Source of the DNA: Trichothermofontia sichuanensis B231
GTDB lineage: Bacteria > Cyanobacteriota > Cyanobacteriia > B231
NCBI RefSeq assembly: GCF_026240635.1
Contig: NZ_CP110848.1
Span: forward strand, 932,501-996,500
DNA length: 64,000 nt
Direction of reading: 5' to 3'
The notes below the pieces were generated by a model. The model was not told the DNA's origin and made no database searches. It was given only the letters and a program-made list of their open reading frames with translations. Below are positions 21,286 through 48,123 of this stretch, one piece after another (positions within the stretch are counted from its first letter, which is position 1; every line of letters starts with the position of its first letter). The translations under genes were made by a program, and so were the position numbers.

Positions 21286-21455
21286 ATACCATCTTTACCT
21301 AATTGACTCAGTACACCATTAAGGTTTGGATCTGGAGCCGACGGGCAGCCCTGATTCCCCAATCCCTTCTCTCAAACGGGGTGAGGGTCGCCCCAGGGGA
21401 ATACCCCCAGCCTACCCCAGTAAATCTGTACTTGATGATTGCGGTAAAGGCTGTA
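21286..21455 (+). mobile_element. MITE-like repeat family A (TACAGCCTTTACC ends)
   Basis: A 170-bp block from TACCATCTTTACCTAATT to GGTAAAGGCTGTA. The ends are inverted repeats (10 of 13 bases). It shares AAGGTTTGGATC, the CTTCTC...GGGTGAGG core and CTGTACTTGATGATT with the copy at 23585-23757. Confidence 0.78.
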
Positions 21456-22580: not shown

Positions 22581-22727
22581 GTCCCCTACCAACGGGGTGT
22601 AGGCTGAGGGGCGATAAATTGGCTCCCCTCCTCCCAGCTTGGGAGCAGGGGTTGGGGGATGAGGGCCGCCGCTTGGATCCAGATCCAAGCCTTAACGGTG
22701 TACTAAGTCAATTAGGTAAAGGCCGTA
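22581..22727 (-). repeat. MITE-like repeat family A, reverse copy
   Basis: The right end reads AATTAGGTAAAGGCCGTA, the reverse complement of the family A left end with one change. The core GGGGTTGGGGGATGAGGG and ATCCAGATCCAAGCCTTAA matches other copies. The left limit is not sharp. It forms most of the ruvC upstream region. Confidence 0.72.
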
Positions 22728-22767: not shown

Positions 22768-23262
22768 ATGAAACAGCGAATTCTGGGCATTGATCCGGGG
22801 TTGGCAACTTTGGGGTTTGGCATTATTGAGGGCAACCCGGAAACACTACCAAATTTGTTGGATTTTGGCGTCATTACCACACCCGCTAAGCAAGAGATCG
22901 GCGATCGCCTCTGTGTTTTATACAACGATTTGAAAACCCTTATTCAACATTGGCAACCAGATTTTGTCGCGATCGAAAAGTTCTTTTTTTATCGCATGGG
23001 GAACACGATTTTGATTGCGCAAGCACGGGGAGTGATTATGCTAGTTCTGGCGCAACATCAGGTTCCCTATGTGGAGTTTACCCCGGCCCAAGTTAAGCAA
23101 GCCCTAACGGGTTATGGCAGCGCCCAAAAATACGAAGTCCAAGAAGCCGTTGCCCAGGAACTAGGTCTAGAAACAATCCCAAAACCCGACGATGCTGCCG
23201 ACGCCCTCGCCCTCGCCCTAAGCGCTTGGTTTCAAGGTCAACAGGAATCATCCGCTAGATGA
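22768..23262 (+). CDS. ruvC: Holliday junction resolvase RuvC
   Basis: A 164-residue endonuclease that cuts Holliday junctions as part of RuvABC recombination and repair. The four acidic metal ligands are visible: Asp9 in [14 protein letters not shown], Glu70 in FVAIEKFFF, and Asp142 and Asp145 in [13 protein letters not shown]. The junction-contact segment [17 protein letters not shown] is also typical. Start ATG gives [11 protein letters not shown]. Complete and in usual size. Upstream DNA is largely repeat sequence. Confidence 0.97.
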
Positions 23263-23407
23263 TACCGAAGCATCAAATTGGCAATTTTAGCAATAACCTT
23301 GAAAACACCCTCGATGCGAAAATACAATTCAAAAGTATACTCTACAGCATTTCCCAATCTGCTAAGATGCGATTATCGACGTGAATAGGCTTAATGGTAA
23401 TGCTCAT
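23238..23407 (-). pseudogene. possible frameshifted small ORF overlapping ruvC 3' end
   Basis: Leftward, ATG gives MSITIKPIHVDNRILADW, then a stop. One base out of frame it continues NAVEYTFELYFRIEGVFKVI and [17 protein letters not shown] before TGA. The two halves join well after a one-base shift near 23358, and the result looks like a small globular protein. I recognise no family. It may be real decay, a sequencing error or chance. Confidence 0.3.
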
Positions 23408-23584
23408 GCGTACCTCATGATCTTCAGAAGTGCTGTCGCTAACCAACTGCGGTTAATTTGCATTTTTTGACATTTTGTGGAGATTCCTTGAGAAATTCAG
23501 CAAAAGTTTAACCTTATTTTTGCAGGGCGTGTAGATTAGGATGCAATTGCTATAAACAATAGACATCTGGCTTCGTGGGCATGA
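23408..23584. other. AT-rich intergenic stretch before family A element
   Basis: No gene or repeat recognised. The A+T content is higher than in the surroundings. It is separated from the RND operon by the family A element. Confidence 0.4.
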
Positions 23585-23757
23585 TACAGCCTTTACCTAA
23601 TTTACTGAGTACACAGTTAAGGTTTGGATCTCGATCCGACCGGCAGCCTTCATTTCCCAACCCCTTCTCTCCACTTGGGAGAAGGAAACCCTCACCAGCG
23701 GGCTGTACCCATCCTACCCAGATAAAACTGTACTTTATGATTGAGGTAAAGGCTGTA
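23585..23757 (+). mobile_element. MITE-like repeat family A, best-preserved copy
   Basis: A 173-bp element bounded by TACAGCCTTTACC and GGTAAAGGCTGTA, a perfect 13-bp inverted repeat, each ending in TA. This is compatible with TA target duplication as in IS630/Tc1-mariner derived MITEs. No coding capacity. The final A is the first base of the HlyD-family start codon, so the element forms the complete leader of the efflux operon. Confidence 0.85.
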
Positions 23758-25091
23758 TGGCTCGTATAGTAAAAATAATAAAAACACTGGCCACAAGACC
23801 CCAGTCGTGCTTACTGCTGGGAAGTGTTCTTTCCCTCTCCCTGTTGACCAGTGGTTGTGGTGGCAAGACCCAGGCCGGAGCGCCACCCCCGATTCCCGTC
23901 AAGCTTCAGGCGGTCAAGGCGGGCACTGTGACCGATACTTCGGAATTTGTGGGCACGCTGGAGTCGCAACGGCGGGTGATTCTGCGACCAGAGGCCAATG
24001 GCCGGATTGTTAAAGTGTTTGCGGCCCAGGGGGATGTGGTTACCGCCGGTAGTCCGATCCTGCAACTGCGACCGGAGCAAACGACGGCCCGGGTACAGGA
24101 GAGTATGGCGGCGGTCTATGCCCAACGGGCCGCGATGCAGAGTGCAGAGGCCGAGGTGCGGGTAGCCGAGGCGGAGGTGGCCCGTGCCCGGGCCGAGGTC
24201 AAACGTCAGGAGGCTGCTTTCCAGGGCAGCCAGGCGGACCTGGAACTGGCGGAAATTAACTTCAAGCGGGCAGAGACCCTGGTGGGGCAGGGGGTGGAGC
24301 CGCAGCAATCCCTGGATAACCGCAGTCGGGAGCGGGATAATGCGATCGCGGCTCGGGATGCTGCTGCCGAGGCCCTGGATGCGGCCCGCCAATCCCTCCA
24401 GGCGGCAGAGGCGCGTCTGCGATCGGCCCGAACTGCGGTGGAGCGAGCGGCTGCCGATGTGGCCCGTGCTGAGGCGGGGGTTGTGGTGCAGGCAGAGAAT
24501 CTAGCTTTTACGCGGGTGGTGTCGCCGATCGCGGGCATGGTGGGCGATCTCTTAGTTAAGGAAGGTGATTTCGTCAATGTCGGCCAGGAACTCACCCGGA
24601 TTGTGCAAAATGGTGGCGCAATGGATTTACGGATTAACGTTCCTGTTGAGCGTCAGGCCCAATTGCGTCTGGGGATTCCGGTTGAAATGCTTGATCAAGC
24701 AGGGAAAGTGATGACCCAGGGCACGATTAGCTTCATCAATCCCACGGTGAATACGGCCTCCCAAGCGGTTCTGGCAACGGTAACCTTCTCGAACCAGGAT
24801 GGGCAACTGCGGGATGGCCAATATGTGCGGGCACGGGTGATCTGGAGCCAACGTCCGGGTCTGCTGGTGCCGACCACGGCGGTTTCACGGGTGGCGGGTC
24901 AGGAATTTGTCTTTGTCGCGGAGAAAGCAACTAATCAAAACCCAATGGTGGTGCGGCAAACGCCCGTCAAGCTAGGGGCTATCCAGGGTACGGATTTCCA
25001 CGTGCTGGAGGGTATCCAACCGGGGGATGAGATTGCGGTCTCCAATATCCTGCGGCTGCGCAATAATGCCCCCATTCAGCCAGAGTCCTAG
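23757..25091 (+). CDS. RND efflux periplasmic adaptor (HlyD/AcrA family)
   Basis: A 444-residue membrane-fusion protein. It has an N-terminal signal with a possible lipobox (LLTSGC, Cys34), as in AcrA. The lipoyl half-motif EANGRIVKVFAAQGDVVTAG is followed by a long alpha-hairpin coiled coil rich in Ala/Glu/Arg (about residues 110-260), the second lipoyl half VVSPIAGMVGDLLVKEGDFV NVG, then the beta-barrel and membrane-proximal domains. It bridges the inner-membrane pump, encoded 12 bp downstream, and an outer-membrane channel, probably TolC. The ATG lies exactly at the edge of a MITE. Confidence 0.93.
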   Translation: MARIVKIIKTLATRPQSCLLLGSVLSLSLLTSGCGGKTQAGAPPPIPVKLQAVKAGTVTDTSEFVGTLESQRRVILRPEANGRIVKVFAAQGDVVTAGSPILQLRPEQTTARVQESMAAVYAQRAAMQSAEAEVRVAEAEVARARAEVKRQEAAFQGSQADLELAEINFKRAETLVGQGVEPQQSLDNRSRERDNAIAARDAAAEALDAARQSLQAAEARLRSARTAVERAAADVARAEAGVVVQAENLAFTRVVSPIAGMVGDLLVKEGDFVNVGQELTRIVQNGGAMDLRINVPVERQAQLRLGIPVEMLDQAGKVMTQGTISFINPTVNTASQAVLATVTFSNQDGQLRDGQYVRARVIWSQRPGLLVPTTAVSRVAGQEFVFVAEKATNQNPMVVRQTPVKLGAIQGTDFHVLEGIQPGDEIAVSNILRLRNNAPIQPES

Positions 25092-25103: not shown

Positions 25104-28100
25104 ATGGCTATTTTTTCGATCGCCGATCCCTTCATTAAGCGACCGGTCCTCTCCACGGTTTGCACACTCTTAATTCTGCTGGCTGGGGGCATTGCCATTC
25201 CGCTTTTGCCTATTAATAGCTTGCCCGATATTGCCCCGATCACCGTGCGGACTTCAGCGGCTTACATCGGGGCCGATGCTGAAACCATTGAGAATACGGT
25301 CACCTCCACGCTGGAGCGCGGGATCAATGGTGTTGAGAACATGGAGTACATCTCCTCAACCAGTACCAACACTGGGGGGAGTAGTATTGCCACTTCCTTT
25401 GGCGTTTCCACCGACAAGAACATTAACCAGGTCAATGTCCAGAACCGGCTTGCGAGCGTGATTCCTAGCCTGCCGGCGGCGGTGCAGCAATTGGGGGTGT
25501 CTTCGCGGCTGGTTTCGACCAGCATTCTCATGGTCTATGGCTTCTACGGGGAGGAAGGCTCTGGTTTAGACAATCTGTTTATCAGTAATTATCTGGATCT
25601 GTTTGTCTTGGACGAATTGCAACGCCTGCCGGGGGTGGGGGATATCTCGATCCTGGGGGAGCGTAAATATGCCATGCGCCTCTGGTTGGACCCCGATGCC
25701 CTCGCCAGTCGGCAATTGACGGCCACTGATGTGGCTAATGCTCTGCGATCGCAGAATATCCAGGTGGGGGCGGGGTCGATCGGCAGTGAACCTGCGCCAG
25801 TGGGCCAAGCCTTTGATCTGTCTTTGCGAGTGCAGGGACGGCTGGCGGCAGTTGCGGATTTTGAAAACTTAGTATTGAAATCCGAGACCGATGGCACCCT
25901 GGTCAGACTCAAGGACGTTGGTCGGGTAGAACTGGGGGCAGAAGGTTACAACACCCGGGTGAATCTGGGCGGGCAATCGGCGGTGGGTTTGGCTATCTAT
26001 CAGCTACCGGGCAGTAACGCCCTGGATACGGCGGCAGCCGTCAAGGAAAAGCTAGCGGAGCTGGAAAAGGCGTTCCCCCCTGGCATGAAGTATGTGTCGG
26101 CTTTCGATGTCACCGATTTCATTTCTGGCTCGATCCGCAACGTGGTGAGCACCCTTTTCCAGGCGATTTGCCTGGTAGTGTTGATTATTTTCATCTTTTT
26201 GCAGGACTGGCGAACCACGCTGGTGCCGGCGATCGCCATTCCTGTCGCCCTGATTGGGGCAATGGCGATGGCCTTGGCGTTTGGGTTTTCGTTGAATAAC
26301 CTGACTCTGTTTGGCTTAATTCTGGCCTCCGGGTTAGTCGTAGACGATGCGATCGTGATTGTGGAAGCGATCACCACCAAGCTGGAGGAAGGGTTATCCC
26401 CCAGGGAAGCGGCCCTGGCCTGTATGAATGAACTAACAGGGGCGGTGATTTCCACCTCGTTGGTCCTGATTGCGGTCTTTGTGCCAGTGGCGTTTTTCCC
26501 TGGTTCAGTGGGGATTATTTATCAGCAATTCGCGATGACGATCGCCTTTACTGTCTTGTTTTCTACCTTTAACGCAATTACCTTTACCCCCACCCTCTCA
26601 GCTTTGATCCTGCGTCCGCCCCAGCCGAGGCGTGGCCCGCTGGGGGCTTTCTTCCGGGGATTTAATTCCGGCCTGGCGGGTACCACTGCTCGCTATGCCG
26701 AGGTGGTCCGGGCGCTGATCCGTCGCCGCTGGCTGATTATGGGCGGGTTTGCAGCGGGCCTGGTCTTAACCGCCTGGGTTTATGGCAGTATCCCAACCGG
26801 GTTTGTGCCAGAGGCAGATCAGGGTCTCTTGATTGGCATTATTCAGGCGCCTGATGGGGTTTCGGTGCAGTATACCGATCGCGTGGGCCGGGAGGTGGAT
26901 GCAGCGTTGGCGGAGGAAACTGATATTGAAACCCGATTGGTGGTGGCCGGGTTTGGCCTGGGTGGCAGTGCGCCCAACCAAGGCACTTTTTTTGCTCGCC
27001 TCAAGGATTGGTCGGAGCGGCCCCGGGCGGCGCAATCGGTCCAGGCGATTCTGGAGCGGCTCAATCAACGGTTTGCCCAAAACCAGGAGGCCTTGATCGT
27101 TGCCCAGAATGTGCCGGCCTTGCCTGGATTTGGCAGTGCCGGGGGGTTTGAGTTGCAGCTTCAGGACCGGAGTGGCGGACGCTTCAGCCTGGATGAATTC
27201 TTCAGTGTGGCCCAGCAAATTATCGCCAGGGCCAACCAGGACCCGGCCATGACACGGGTGTTTACCCAATTTAGTGTGGGTACCCCCCAATTGGAGATTC
27301 GCCTCGATCGCGATCGGCTGGAAGCGATGAATGTGGACTTTGCCCAAGCCACAGGGGTGCTGGCGGCCTATGTGGGGAGCCAGTACGTGAATGACTTCAC
27401 CTTTGGCCAACGCAGCTATCGCGTCTATATCCAGGCTGACGCCGACCATCGCAATGATCCTAGGGATCTGGACAAGCTGTACGTGCGATCGCGCACGGGC
27501 GACCTGGTGCGCTTTAGTGAAGTCGCCCAGATAGAACCGATCACGGGGCCACAAATTATTAACCGTTTTAACCTCTACCGGGCGATCCGGATTCAGGGGC
27601 AAGCCGCACCGGGCTTCAGTTCCGGGCAGGCGATCGCGGCGATGGAGCGCATCATTGCCGAGGTAGCACCGCCGGGGATTGGCTACGAGTGGAGCGGTCT
27701 TTCACGGGAGGAAAAGGCGGCAGGGGGTCAGGCCGCTGTGATCTTTGCCCTGGGGCTGGTGGTGGTGTTCCTAGTGCTGGCGGCCCAATACGAAAACTAT
27801 ATCGATCCCCTGATTATTATGTTGACCGTCCCCTTGGCCATCCTAGGGGCCATGACCTTTGTTGGGTTGCGGGGCATGGCCAATGACATCTATGTTCAGG
27901 TGGCCTTGGTGATGCTGATCGGGTTGGCGAGTAAGAATGCCATTCTGATCGTGGAATTTGCCAACCAGGCCCGTCAGGAGGGATTGAGTATCGTTGAAGC
28001 CGCCGTGCAGGCGGCCAAGGAACGTTTCCGCCCCATTTTGATGACAGCCATTTCTAGCCTTTTTGGCTTCTTCCCCTTGGTGGTGGCCTCTGGAGTAGGG

Positions 28101-28307
28101 TCCGCCAACCAGCGATCGGTAGGGACAGCAGTCTTTGGTGGCTTACTAGTGGCCACAGTCTTAAGTTTCCTGGTAGTTCCCGTGCTGTACGTAGTCATCA
28201 AAAGGTTGACCGATCGTTTTATCTTCGGCAAAACTGAGGAACCTGCGACCCTGCCTAAGCCGCCGCTACCCCCGATTGAGGGGAAAGGCGTGAGGAAAGA
28301 GAAGTGA
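25104..28307 (+). CDS. RND multidrug efflux transporter (AcrB/HAE1 type)
   Basis: A 1067-residue inner-membrane proton-driven pump. Topology is the HAE-1 pattern: one N-terminal span, a large periplasmic porter loop, six spans, a second loop and five spans. Proton-relay residues are visible: Asp414-Asp415 in ASGLVVDDAIVIVEA and Lys944 in LIGLASKNAILIVEFANQAR. The family signature GMANDIYVQVALVMLIGLAS is close to the consensus. It probably exports drugs or hydrophobic compounds with the preceding adaptor. The C-terminal tail is Pro/Lys-rich. A family B repeat follows the stop by 10 bp. Confidence 0.96.
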   Translation: MAIFSIADPFIKRPVLSTVCTLLILLAGGIAIPLLPINSLPDIAPITVRTSAAYIGADAETIENTVTSTLERGINGVENMEYISSTSTNTGGSSIATSFGVSTDKNINQVNVQNRLASVIPSLPAAVQQLGVSSRLVSTSILMVYGFYGEEGSGLDNLFISNYLDLFVLDELQRLPGVGDISILGERKYAMRLWLDPDALASRQLTATDVANALRSQNIQVGAGSIGSEPAPVGQAFDLSLRVQGRLAAVADFENLVLKSETDGTLVRLKDVGRVELGAEGYNTRVNLGGQSAVGLAIYQLPGSNALDTAAAVKEKLAELEKAFPPGMKYVSAFDVTDFISGSIRNVVSTLFQAICLVVLIIFIFLQDWRTTLVPAIAIPVALIGAMAMALAFGFSLNNLTLFGLILASGLVVDDAIVIVEAITTKLEEGLSPREAALACMNELTGAVISTSLVLIAVFVPVAFFPGSVGIIYQQFAMTIAFTVLFSTFNAITFTPTLSALILRPPQPRRGPLGAFFRGFNSGLAGTTARYAEVVRALIRRRWLIMGGFAAGLVLTAWVYGSIPTGFVPEADQGLLIGIIQAPDGVSVQYTDRVGREVDAALAEETDIETRLVVAGFGLGGSAPNQGTFFARLKDWSERPRAAQSVQAILERLNQRFAQNQEALIVAQNVPALPGFGSAGGFELQLQDRSGGRFSLDEFFSVAQQIIARANQDPAMTRVFTQFSVGTPQLEIRLDRDRLEAMNVDFAQATGVLAAYVGSQYVNDFTFGQRSYRVYIQADADHRNDPRDLDKLYVRSRTGDLVRFSEVAQIEPITGPQIINRFNLYRAIRIQGQAAPGFSSGQAIAAMERIIAEVAPPGIGYEWSGLSREEKAAGGQAAVIFALGLVVVFLVLAAQYENYIDPLIIMLTVPLAILGAMTFVGLRGMANDIYVQVALVMLIGLASKNAILIVEFANQARQEGLSIVEAAVQAAKERFRPILMTAISSLFGFFPLVVASGVGSANQRSVGTAVFGGLLVATVLSFLVVPVLYVVIKRLTDRFIFGKTEEPATLPKPPLPPIEGKGVRKEK

Positions 28308-28484: not shown

Positions 28485-29807
28485 CTAAACACGGGATAGC
28501 CACTGCGATCGCGGCGGGGTTGTTTCCACCAGGGGTTTTCCTTGGGCGATGACATGGGTGACCGTCGCCCGACGACGCAGGGCATCGTAGGGACTTTCGG
28601 CATCGAGGACGATCAGGTTGGCGGGTTTACCTACGGCAATCCCGTAGCGGTCTTCAAGGTTCAGGGTACGGGCACCGTTGACAGTAATCATGTCGTAGCA
28701 GGCATTAATTTCGGCCAAGCCTGTCATCTGGCTGGCGTGGATCGCCATGTGGGCCACTTCCAGCATATTGCCCGTGCCTAGGGAGTACCAGGGGTCCTGG
28801 ATGCAGTCATGGCCGAGGCTGACGTTGAGGCCGTGTTGCCAAAGTTCTTTGATGCGGGTGAGGCCCCGACGTTTGGGGTAGGTATCTGTGCGGCCCTGGA
28901 GGGTAATGTTGATCAGGGGATTAGCAATAAAGTTGAGGTTCGTGCGTTGCAGAATCCCCATGAGCTTAAGTGCATAGGCGTTGTTGTAGGACCCAAAGGC
29001 GGTGGTATGGCTGGCACTCACCCGTGCCCCAAGACCCGTGCGCAGGGTTAAGGCCGCCACAACTTCGAGAAACCGGGATTGGTCATCATCAATTTCGTCA
29101 CAGTGGATATCAATCAGCCGATCGTAGGTCTGGGCCAGCTCAAAAATGCGCTGGAGCGATCGCACCCCATCCTCCCGCGTCAGTTCATAGTGGGGGATGC
29201 CTCCGACCCCATCCGCTCCTAACCGCAACGCTTCCTCCATCTGCTGTTCCGTCTGGGCATCGCCATAGATCCCATCCTGGGGAAAGGCAACCACCTGGAG
29301 CGTGAGCCAGTCCCGCACCTGTTCCCGAACAGCAAGTAACCCCTTGAGGGCCGTTAAACTTGGCTCACTCACGTCGGCATGACTGCGGACAAAGAGGACT
29401 CCCTGGGCTGCCATCTGTTTTAGCACCGCGATCGCCCGCGCTTCCACATCTGCCTGGGTTAACGCTTGCTTCCGTTCACGCCAGATTTCGATCCCTTCAA
29501 ACAGGGTGCCACTCTGGTTCCAACGCGGTTCCCCCGCCGTCAGGGCCGAATCCAGATGAATATGGGATTCCACAAACGGAGGACTGACCCACTGGCCATT
29601 GAGAACAATCTCCTGGCTAGCGATCAGATCCAGATGGGGCGCGATCGCCACAATCCGGTTGCCTTCGATACCAATATCGACACGATCAACTTCACTATCA
29701 ACTTCACTGGAATCATCAACTTCACTGGAATCAGGGTGTCCAGGGAAACCCGCAGCGCCCCGCTGGCTGACCAACCGTCCCTGTCGCAGGATCAGATCTA
29801 AAGCCAT
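28485..29807 (-). CDS. codA: cytosine deaminase (amidohydrolase family)
   Basis: A 440-residue metal-dependent amidohydrolase. The metal ligands and catalytic positions fit CodA: SHIHLDSAL, HCDEIDDDQSRF, SASHTTAFGSYN and LGHDCIQDPWYSLG. It hydrolyses cytosine to uracil for pyrimidine salvage, although some relatives act on other N-heterocycles such as isoguanine. An acidic micro-repeat, DSSEVDDSSEVDSEVD, near the N-terminus is coded by tandem copies of TCAACTTCACT-type DNA and looks like an expansion in a surface loop. It lies 36 bp downstream of mcdB on the same strand. Confidence 0.88.
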   Translation of the reverse strand: MALDLILRQGRLVSQRGAAGFPGHPDSSEVDDSSEVDSEVDRVDIGIEGNRIVAIAPHLDLIASQEIVLNGQWVSPPFVESHIHLDSALTAGEPRWNQSGTLFEGIEIWRERKQALTQADVEARAIAVLKQMAAQGVLFVRSHADVSEPSLTALKGLLAVREQVRDWLTLQVVAFPQDGIYGDAQTEQQMEEALRLGADGVGGIPHYELTREDGVRSLQRIFELAQTYDRLIDIHCDEIDDDQSRFLEVVAALTLRTGLGARVSASHTTAFGSYNNAYALKLMGILQRTNLNFIANPLINITLQGRTDTYPKRRGLTRIKELWQHGLNVSLGHDCIQDPWYSLGTGNMLEVAHMAIHASQMTGLAEINACYDMITVNGARTLNLEDRYGIAVGKPANLIVLDAESPYDALRRRATVTHVIAQGKPLVETTPPRSQWLSRV

Positions 29808-47868: not shown

Positions 47869-48123
47869 TGACAGCCTTTACCTAATTTACTCAGGACACA
47901 TTTAAGAGGACACATTTAAGGCTTGGATCTCGATTCGACCGGCAATCCTCATTCCCCAACCCCTGCTCCCAAACGAGGTGAGCCGCAAATTGTTGGCGTA
48001 ATTTGTCGCTTCAAGCACCTCATTCCCCAACCCCTGCTCCCAAACGAGGTGAGGGTCGCACCAGAGGTATACCCCCCTCCTACCCAGGTAAAACTGTACT
48101 TTATGATTGAGGTAAAGGCTGTA
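47869..48123 (+). mobile_element. MITE-like repeat family A with internal duplication
   Basis: Left end TGACAGCCTTTACCTAATTT, right end ATTGAGGTAAAGGCTGTA. It is longer than other copies because a segment starting CCTCATTCCCCAACCCCTGC appears twice (near 47947 and 48019), with GACACATTTAAG also doubled near 47895-47920. It ends 105 bp before the methyltransferase gene. Confidence 0.82.

What the first reader, a model, noticed from the sequence alone, without database searches (positions are those of the whole stretch)
23585..23757. MITE-like element forms the entire leader of the RND efflux operon
The 13-bp inverted end GGTAAAGGCTGTA runs directly into the ATG of the HlyD-type gene, its last base being the A of the start codon. 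Any 5' untranslated sequence and probably the promoter must therefore come from the element. Insertion of mobile DNA ahead of efflux genes is a known route to altered expression.
Basis: partly seen in the sequence, partly recalled or inferred. Interest (0 to 1): 0.55.

Follow-up and report, generated by a model that had tools for sequence, protein, structure and literature searches.

The report
Mobile repeat abutting efflux gene start
A small mobile DNA repeat that occurs well over a hundred times in this hot-spring cyanobacterium has landed exactly on the start codon of an efflux-pump gene, rebuilding that codon and becoming the last 172 letters before it, but more non-coding DNA remains upstream and probably still holds the promoter.

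Summary
Window 23585-23757 is a full 173-bp copy of a high-copy MITE in Trichothermofontia sichuanensis B231 (194 exact 13-mer ends genome-wide, reversed-pattern control 0), and its last base is the A of the adaptor gene's ATG. It is IS630/Tc1-mariner-like: TA is the target duplication (three clean empty sites) and its ends resemble resident DDE_3 elements. The native site therefore already read TATGGCTCG: the start codon pre-existed and was rebuilt. "Entire leader, probably promoter" does not follow: 322 bp of other non-coding DNA lie between ruvC and the element, including an older 95-bp MITE and a candidate native extended -10 (23548-23556). Shown: the element supplies the whole ribosome-binding region. 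Inferred: transcription starts upstream and reads through. Effect on expression unknown; folding predicts a covered start region, but also without the left repeat and, less, in the empty site. Two other genes (egtC, an MBL-fold gene) firmly and a 2OG-Fe(II) oxygenase possibly share the register, no more than chance allows if only firm cases count (p 0.21). Elsewhere ends 0-29 nt before starts are rare (3) against after stops (44). Precedent: Correia elements of Neisseria. New family, known kind.

The parts
22768..23262 (+). ruvC, upstream co-directional gene
   Evidence: Pfam RuvC 6.3e-39
23263..23584 (+). 322 bp of further intergenic DNA between ruvC and the MITE; no match in the 58 other genomes searched
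23342..23436 (+). older, decayed IS630-like MITE of about 95 bp (second mobile element in the same leader)
   Evidence: 84% over 95 bp to a TA-flanked copy at G000:C1:2776618-2776711; ends with TACAGC and GTAC spaced as in the resident DDE_3 element, read by eye
23548..23556 (+). TGCTATAAA, candidate native extended -10 promoter, 28 bp upstream of the element
   Evidence: motif match only; one site, shuffle P 0.0155
23585..23757 (+). MITE copy (173 bp counting both TAs); IS630/Tc1-mariner-like
23585..23586 (+). left TA target duplication
23587..23613 (+). left terminal inverted repeat, CAGCCTTTACC...GTACA
23646..23685 (+). inner 40-bp hairpin module that matches repeats in other cyanobacteria
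   Evidence: query positions about 62-101 in most listed matches; 23 of 58 other genomes had some match to the element
23729..23755 (+). right terminal inverted repeat; holds Shine-Dalgarno-like GAGGT (23743-23747) and AAAGG
23756..23757 (+). right TA target duplication; its A is the A of the start codon
23757..25091 (+). RND efflux periplasmic adaptor (HlyD/AcrA type) lipoprotein gene
   Evidence: TIGR01730 186 bits, cut-off 94.9; HlyD_3 56.2 bits, cut-off 22.2
25104..28307 (+). RND permease (AcrB type), second gene, 12-bp gap
   Evidence: ACR_tran E 0; TIGR00915 1205 bits, cut-off 940
23581..23769 (+). 62-codon open frame that starts 4 nt before the element, runs through it and ends 13 nt inside hlyD; 5 codons in the empty site
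   Evidence: 18 of 61 copies are open in this frame, so probably incidental

Best explanation
The segment is one copy of a T. sichuanensis MITE moved by an IS630/Tc1-mariner-type transposase. It inserted at the TA of a native ...GGGCATGA-TA-TGGCTCG... start site. Because the target TA is duplicated, the start codon was rebuilt (A from the right-hand TA, TG from the gene), the protein is unchanged, and the native leader was pushed 171 bases away from the gene. [Shown: family, TA duplication in this family, register. Follows: the ATG pre-existed.] The operon is most likely still transcribed from DNA upstream of the element (perhaps from the extended -10 at 23548-23556) or by readthrough from ruvC. 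[Inferred.] The element thus forms the gene-proximal leader rather than the promoter: it puts a Shine-Dalgarno-like stretch (GAGGTAAAGG) in place of the native one, within a leader whose two repeats can pair with each other and cover it. Whether expression falls, rises or is unchanged is open; mild damping is my guess. [Inferred from folding, weakly.]
For: Exact repeats and register. High-copy family, controls 0. TA..TA ends in 61 of 75 two-ended copies and TA at 275 of 295 ends. Of 94 joined flank pairs, three give clean empty sites with a single TA in other repeats (4041963-4042235, 251976-252199, 3424912-3425319). Ends share TACAGCCTTTMCC-N11-GTACA with a resident DDE_3 element (sequence, found; spacing read by eye; DDE_3 as the IS630 domain is recalled). 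Joined flanks at hlyD give ...GGGCATGATATGGCTCG with the ATG in place. Longest anti-SD match 5 nt with the element, 3 nt in the empty site; 69 of 359 genes have 5 or more. Region -15..-5 is 0.13 unpaired for each of five RNA starts tried from 23335 to 23585, gene median 0.44, 5th percentile 0.15 (n=120). Fold z -4.0 from 23563.
Against: No transcription data and no orthologous empty site (native leader matched 0 of 58 other genomes). The candidate -10 was picked after looking; other upstream hits are within chance. TATGAT in the right end leaves room for a weak promoter; a start at 23748 would open the SD region (0.78). Against damping by the repeat pair: the region stays mostly paired for starts that skip the left repeat wholly or in part (0.14-0.26 for five starts, 23600-23720), and the empty site is also low (0.19); only AUG falls, 0.50 to 0.27 (gene median 0.52, 5th percentile 0.02). 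From 23620 the fold is not unusual (z -1.3). Repeat pairing exists in any MITE, so it is no evidence of a regulatory role.
Confidence: 0.68

Rival explanations
1. The element brings its own outward promoter near its right end (TATGAT, 23736-23741), which now drives the operon with a leader of about 10 nt, as the first reader proposed and as is reported for Correia elements and proposed for MITEAba12.
For: TATGAT is in the right-end consensus; precedents in PMC2649163 and PMC6382973 (passages); a start near 23748 frees the SD region in folding.
Against: No consensus hit in the element that would transcribe the whole gene; right ends not enriched facing gene starts (12 R of 35 within 100 nt); apart from exact landings, ends lie near stops far more often than near starts (44 against 3 within 30 nt).
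Confidence: 0.2
2. Neutral landing: one of well over a hundred insertions that happened to hit a TATG start, with no effect on expression worth selecting. (Compatible with the first part of the best explanation.)
For: 37% of ATG genes have T at -1 (123 of 333); exact-start landings among the 8 ends within 30 nt of a start, expected share 0.205: 3 firm p 0.21, 4 p 0.06, 5 p 0.012. The empty site folds about as closed at -15..-5 (0.19 against 0.13).
Against: Ends 0-29 nt before starts are strongly avoided compared with after stops (3 against 44, p 8e-12), so position near a start matters; the element replaces the entire ribosome-binding region.
Confidence: 0.45
3. The start is wrong and the gene begins elsewhere, so the register is an accident.
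For: A TTG at codon 30 exists.
Against: TTG would remove most of the lipoprotein signal (lipobox LTSGC); 4 of 15 homologue loci printed show a similar short lipoprotein leader (L036, L037, L044, L049), 4 others carry a longer N terminus, and 7 were printed on the wrong strand and say nothing; an upstream start is barred by the in-frame TGA.
Confidence: 0.04

Closest known systems
Correia repeat enclosed elements (CREE) of Neisseria
   Same: Small MITE-like repeats in more than 100 copies; [quoted passage not shown] meningitidis, transcribed as part of the mRNA.
   Different: Unrelated sequence and host; CREE promoters, IHF site and RNase III cleavage are reported there, none shown here; 76 CREE of one strain lie 5' of genes, whereas here ends close to starts are rare.
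ISY100 and other IS630/Tc1-mariner elements
   Same: TA target, duplicated on insertion; 24-bp inverted repeats in ISY100 (PMC2170065, passages).
   Different: No transposase inside; the resident DDE_3 copies differ between the shared end motifs, and 6 of 12 matched pieces contain stops.
MITEAba12 (Acinetobacter)
   Same: MITE ends joined to host genes at the start (first four residues from the element), outward promoter proposed (PMC6382973, passages).
   Different: Here only the A of the ATG comes from the duplicated target; no codon is added.
Nezha and other cyanobacterial MITEs
   Same: Cyanobacterial MITE (title seen in the reference list of PMC10969869; the paper itself not seen).
   Different: Sequence relation not tested.

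Membership tests
MITE of IS630/Tc1-mariner type | Short, multi-copy, no room for a transposase gene | tested here: met
   94 paired copies of 113-439 bp, mostly 168-173 and 223-224; 157 left ends in this genome
MITE of IS630/Tc1-mariner type | Terminal inverted repeats | tested here: met
   13/13 exact incl. TA, 30-nt arms at 80%
MITE of IS630/Tc1-mariner type | TA target site, duplicated on insertion | tested here: met
   Single TA in empty sites for three of 94 joined flank pairs; the other spanning hits that were printed (60 of 83 printed) were nested, gapped or self matches; 275 of 295 ends keep TA
MITE of IS630/Tc1-mariner type | Ends matched by an autonomous partner | tested here: inconclusive
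   A resident DDE_3 element shares TACAGCCTTTMCC and GTACA at the same spacing but not the 11 bases between; 6 of 12 DDE_3 pieces contain stops
MITE of IS630/Tc1-mariner type | Observed transposition | not testable with these tools
   needs strains or an assay
Correia element (CREE) | CREE terminal sequences and Neisseria host | tested here: not met
   CREE ends given as CCGGTACGG / TCAGGACAA in PMC2649163 are not the ends here; host is a cyanobacterium. It works like a CREE at this gene but is not one.
Correia element (CREE) | Not defining but shared: final A of the element is the A of the ATG | tested here: met
   precedent text
Promoter-donating mobile element | Outward promoter active toward the gene | tested here: inconclusive
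   No consensus hit that would transcribe the whole gene; no RNA data

The most novel reading that the evidence does not exclude
The ends of this MITE act as a portable translation-start cassette: both ends close with ...AGGTAAAGGCTGTA, so a landing on a TATG start both preserves the ATG and installs a Shine-Dalgarno-like stretch at workable distance. That would be why, in a genome where ends 0-29 nt before a start are almost absent, this adaptor, egtC and an MBL-fold gene (and perhaps a 2OG-Fe(II) oxygenase) tolerate it exactly there. In the most decayed of these (L191) the repeat has drifted to TGGAGGGAGGGGCTGTATG, losing the repeat but keeping a purine-rich stretch; its start is uncertain. 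Genes with such leaders could share a common translational control.
Probability: 0.16. Interest if true: 0.55.

Novelty: new member of a known kind. Interest (0 to 1): 0.36.

Why it matters
It shows a precise, checkable way in which a TA-targeting element can enter a gene's 5' region without changing the protein: duplication of the target rebuilds the ATG while the entire ribosome-binding region is replaced. More than one gene in this genome has the arrangement, so it can be tested as a class. For the pump operon itself the effect on expression is unknown.

Tried and rejected
Relatives with an empty site: 59 genomes, the own one and 58 of the same class; best adaptor match elsewhere 49% identity; no match to the native 322 bp in the 58. 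The one genome-contig scan gave at best 37%; plasmids, megablast only, gave none.

Autonomous parent: DDE_3 search of the own genome and end patterns around the hits; no copy with identical ends among those. Family elsewhere: left-end pattern in 1 of 386 phylum genomes, the own one; one partial copy, 88% over 97 bp at a contig end, in G038.

Longer target duplications: 5-10-bp direct repeats beside L083, L085 and window 21287 (seen) were dropped as the three clean empty sites show TA only.

Coding role of the element: 18 of 61 copies open in one frame against 3.5 by shuffling, and 19 of 61 against 2.3 in one frame of the other strand; put down to shared ancestry.

Exact-start landings: five by my gene calls. 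2044566 is doubtful, because a second in-frame ATG with GGGGAGA before it lies 18 nt further. L191 is uncertain, because its ORF can also start at a GTG inside the element or at the next ATG, and its codon score is low, 22. With a gene-score threshold of 40 the count is 4, L191 out and the doubtful one in. Three are firm: 956257, 1646622, 2073273.

Samples and dropped rows: site listings stopped at about 100 of 147, 156 and 194, so the copies fetched are a sample. 123 detected spans became 75 after removing overlaps and opposite-strand doubles; ends kept with <=8 mismatches of 30; background genes complete, score >=30, ATG, at least 60 nt from any end. Gene calls are my own codon-score heuristic; a first version misplaced the hlyD start. 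Four ends overlap gene 3' ends and are not in the 44. The start/stop contrast holds at thresholds 20, 40, 60: 3 v 44, 3 v 36, 2 v 28. One search read minus-strand loci wrongly and was redone. Literature searches were used as listings only (for 61, one listed paper, PMC2170065, was then read in passages; for 49 and 62, PMC6382973).

Full report
What it is. The window lies at 932501-996500 of a 4,436,989-bp single-contig genome. That length equals the one published for the thermophilic cyanobacterium Trichothermofontia sichuanensis PKUAC-SCTB231 (PMC10172474, passages); the match of length is my basis for the name. Positions 23585-23757 are bounded by TACAGCCTTTACC and GGTAAAGGCTGTA. The last base is the A of the ATG of a 444-aa RND adaptor gene, followed after 12 bp by an AcrB-type permease. 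The next long ORF downstream is on the other strand (28485-29807), so this looks like a two-gene operon.

The family. The 24-base left end occurs 147 times and the 27-base right end 156 times (<=3 mismatches), and the exact 13-mer 194 times, each with 0 hits for the reversed control. From 589 kb held (the window and stretches around listed copies) I identified 295 ends and 94 paired copies, with main sizes 168-173 and 223-224 bp. The 173 and 224 classes average 89% (n=7) and 91% (n=29) identity to their consensus. A left-end pattern hit 1 of 386 phylum genomes, the own one; a 97-bp relative at 88% lies at a contig end of G038.

Mechanism of insertion. Of 295 ends 275 keep TA. When the flanks of the 94 paired copies are joined with one TA, three insertions match uninterrupted copies of other repeats cleanly across the junction, so TA is duplicated; the other spanning hits that were printed (60 of 83 hits printed) were nested, gapped or self matches. 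Flank bases favour TCT after the TA (T at +1 in 122, C at +2 in 106, T at +3 in 133 of 295). A resident DDE_3 element (L123) begins TACAGCCTTTCCC with GTACA at the same spacing as in the MITE (spacing read by eye); 6 of 12 DDE_3 pieces contain stops. A different TA-flanked MITE (TAGTCATTGCAA...TTGGATTGACCA) is nested in L096, L115 and L117. I therefore file the element as an IS630/Tc1-mariner-type MITE whose active transposase was not identified. ISY100 of Synechocystis is the studied model of TA duplication (PMC2170065, passages).

Consequence at hlyD. With TA duplicated, the native site read GGGCATGA-TA-TGGCTCG, so the ATG existed before; net gain 171 bp. The in-frame TGA inside the element and the lipoprotein signal after the ATG leave no better start (homologues, of which 4 of 15 show a like signal, 4 a longer N terminus and 7 were printed on the wrong strand).

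Is it the entire leader? No. Between ruvC and the element lie 322 bp, of which about 95 (23342-23436) are an older IS630-like MITE, 84% identical to a TA-flanked copy at 2776618-2776711. The 322 bp matched none of 58 other genomes. The sigma-70 scan gave 3 hits against 1.3 +/- 1.1 expected: one upstream, one on the other strand, and one with its -10 inside hlyD. TGCTATAAA at 23548-23556 would fit a start about 22 nt before the native ATG (inference). A weak promoter in the right end (TATGAT, 23736-23741) cannot be excluded.

What it probably does. The element replaces the native ribosome-binding region: best anti-SD match 5 nt (GAGGT or AAAGG) against 3 nt in the empty site, where 69 of 359 genes reach 5 or more. 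If RNA starts at or upstream of the element, the two repeats pair and the -15..-5 region is 0.13 unpaired, below the 5th percentile (0.15) of 120 genes. But the region is also mostly paired for starts within the element that skip the left repeat wholly or in part (0.14-0.26, 23600-23720) and opens only for starts at 23735 (0.48) or 23748 (0.78); the empty site gives 0.19. AUG goes from 0.50 to 0.27. Fold z is -4.0 from 23563 and -1.3 from 23620. So, if transcription starts upstream, the leader is longer and more structured; damping is a weak prediction. A 62-codon frame (23581-23769) crosses the element and overlaps the hlyD start; it could couple translation but is probably incidental.

Other genes. 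Of 295 ends (two per complete copy), 148 face a gene start and 147 a gene end by my gene calls. Ends within 0-29 nt: 3 before starts, 44 after stops (p 8e-12). Five further ends coincide with the A of an ATG: this gene, an MBL-fold gene (L091) and egtC (L178; profile match from residue 1, 318.9 bits, cut-off 218.65), neither of the latter two with an ATG, GTG or TTG in the open codons upstream; a 2OG-Fe(II) oxygenase (L191) with other possible starts; and a doubtful one (2044566). Against an expected 20.5% from the TA content before 333 genes, 3 of 8 gives p 0.21, 4 of 8 0.06, 5 of 8 0.012. Of 16 exact GGTAAAGGCTGTATG sites 2 open a long reading frame (444 and 262 codons); the other 14 open 63 codons or fewer, so most ATG-forming landings mean nothing.

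Known or new. The same register is in print for a Correia element, and a Correia element lies between the native promoter and the mtrCDE efflux operon of meningococcus (PMC2649163, passages and section 6); MITEAba12 adds codons to host genes (PMC6382973, passages). I found no mention of this repeat, on limited searching: 6 papers hold the genus name with 'genome' (listing), the describing paper has 0 occurrences of 'transpos' or 'insertion sequence' in its main text, and none of the 8 papers shown of 5,053 holds the genus name. Verdict: a new repeat family of a known kind in a neat but precedented position.

Noticed in passing
window 21287-21455, 47870-48123 (+); ends at 2490, 22727, 43059 (- strand): Further copies of the same MITE in the window, three of them truncated or interrupted; the one ending at 22727 lies just upstream of ruvC.
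   Followed up: partly
window 23342-23436; G000:C1:2776618-2776711 (L306): A second, shorter IS630-like MITE of about 95 bp, one decayed copy in the same leader and one TA-flanked copy elsewhere.
   Followed up: partly
L096, L115, L117, L116, L095, L102: A third TA-flanked MITE (TAGTCATTGCAA...TTGGATTGACCA) nested in or abutting copies of the first.
   Followed up: partly
G000 4041963 region; window near 205, 8838 and 61306: Another high-copy palindromic repeat (GTTTATGGTGGGAGCGC...CCCACCATAAAC), matched in 20 of the held stretches in the printed part.
   Followed up: no
window 23646-23685: A 40-bp hairpin module inside the MITE matches repeats in other cyanobacteria; 23 of 58 other genomes had some match to the element, mostly here, which suggests that the MITE holds a widespread repeat.
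   Followed up: no
ends in 589 kb of held sequence: MITE ends lie 0-29 nt after stop codons far more often (44) than before starts (3, exact landings apart); convergent gene pairs are the commonest setting (23 of 53 fully flanked copies).
   Followed up: partly
G000:C1:2971794, 2925741, 2989794 and others: Resident DDE_3 transposase pieces contain in-frame stops in 6 of 12 matches, so the current mover of the MITE is unclear.
   Followed up: no
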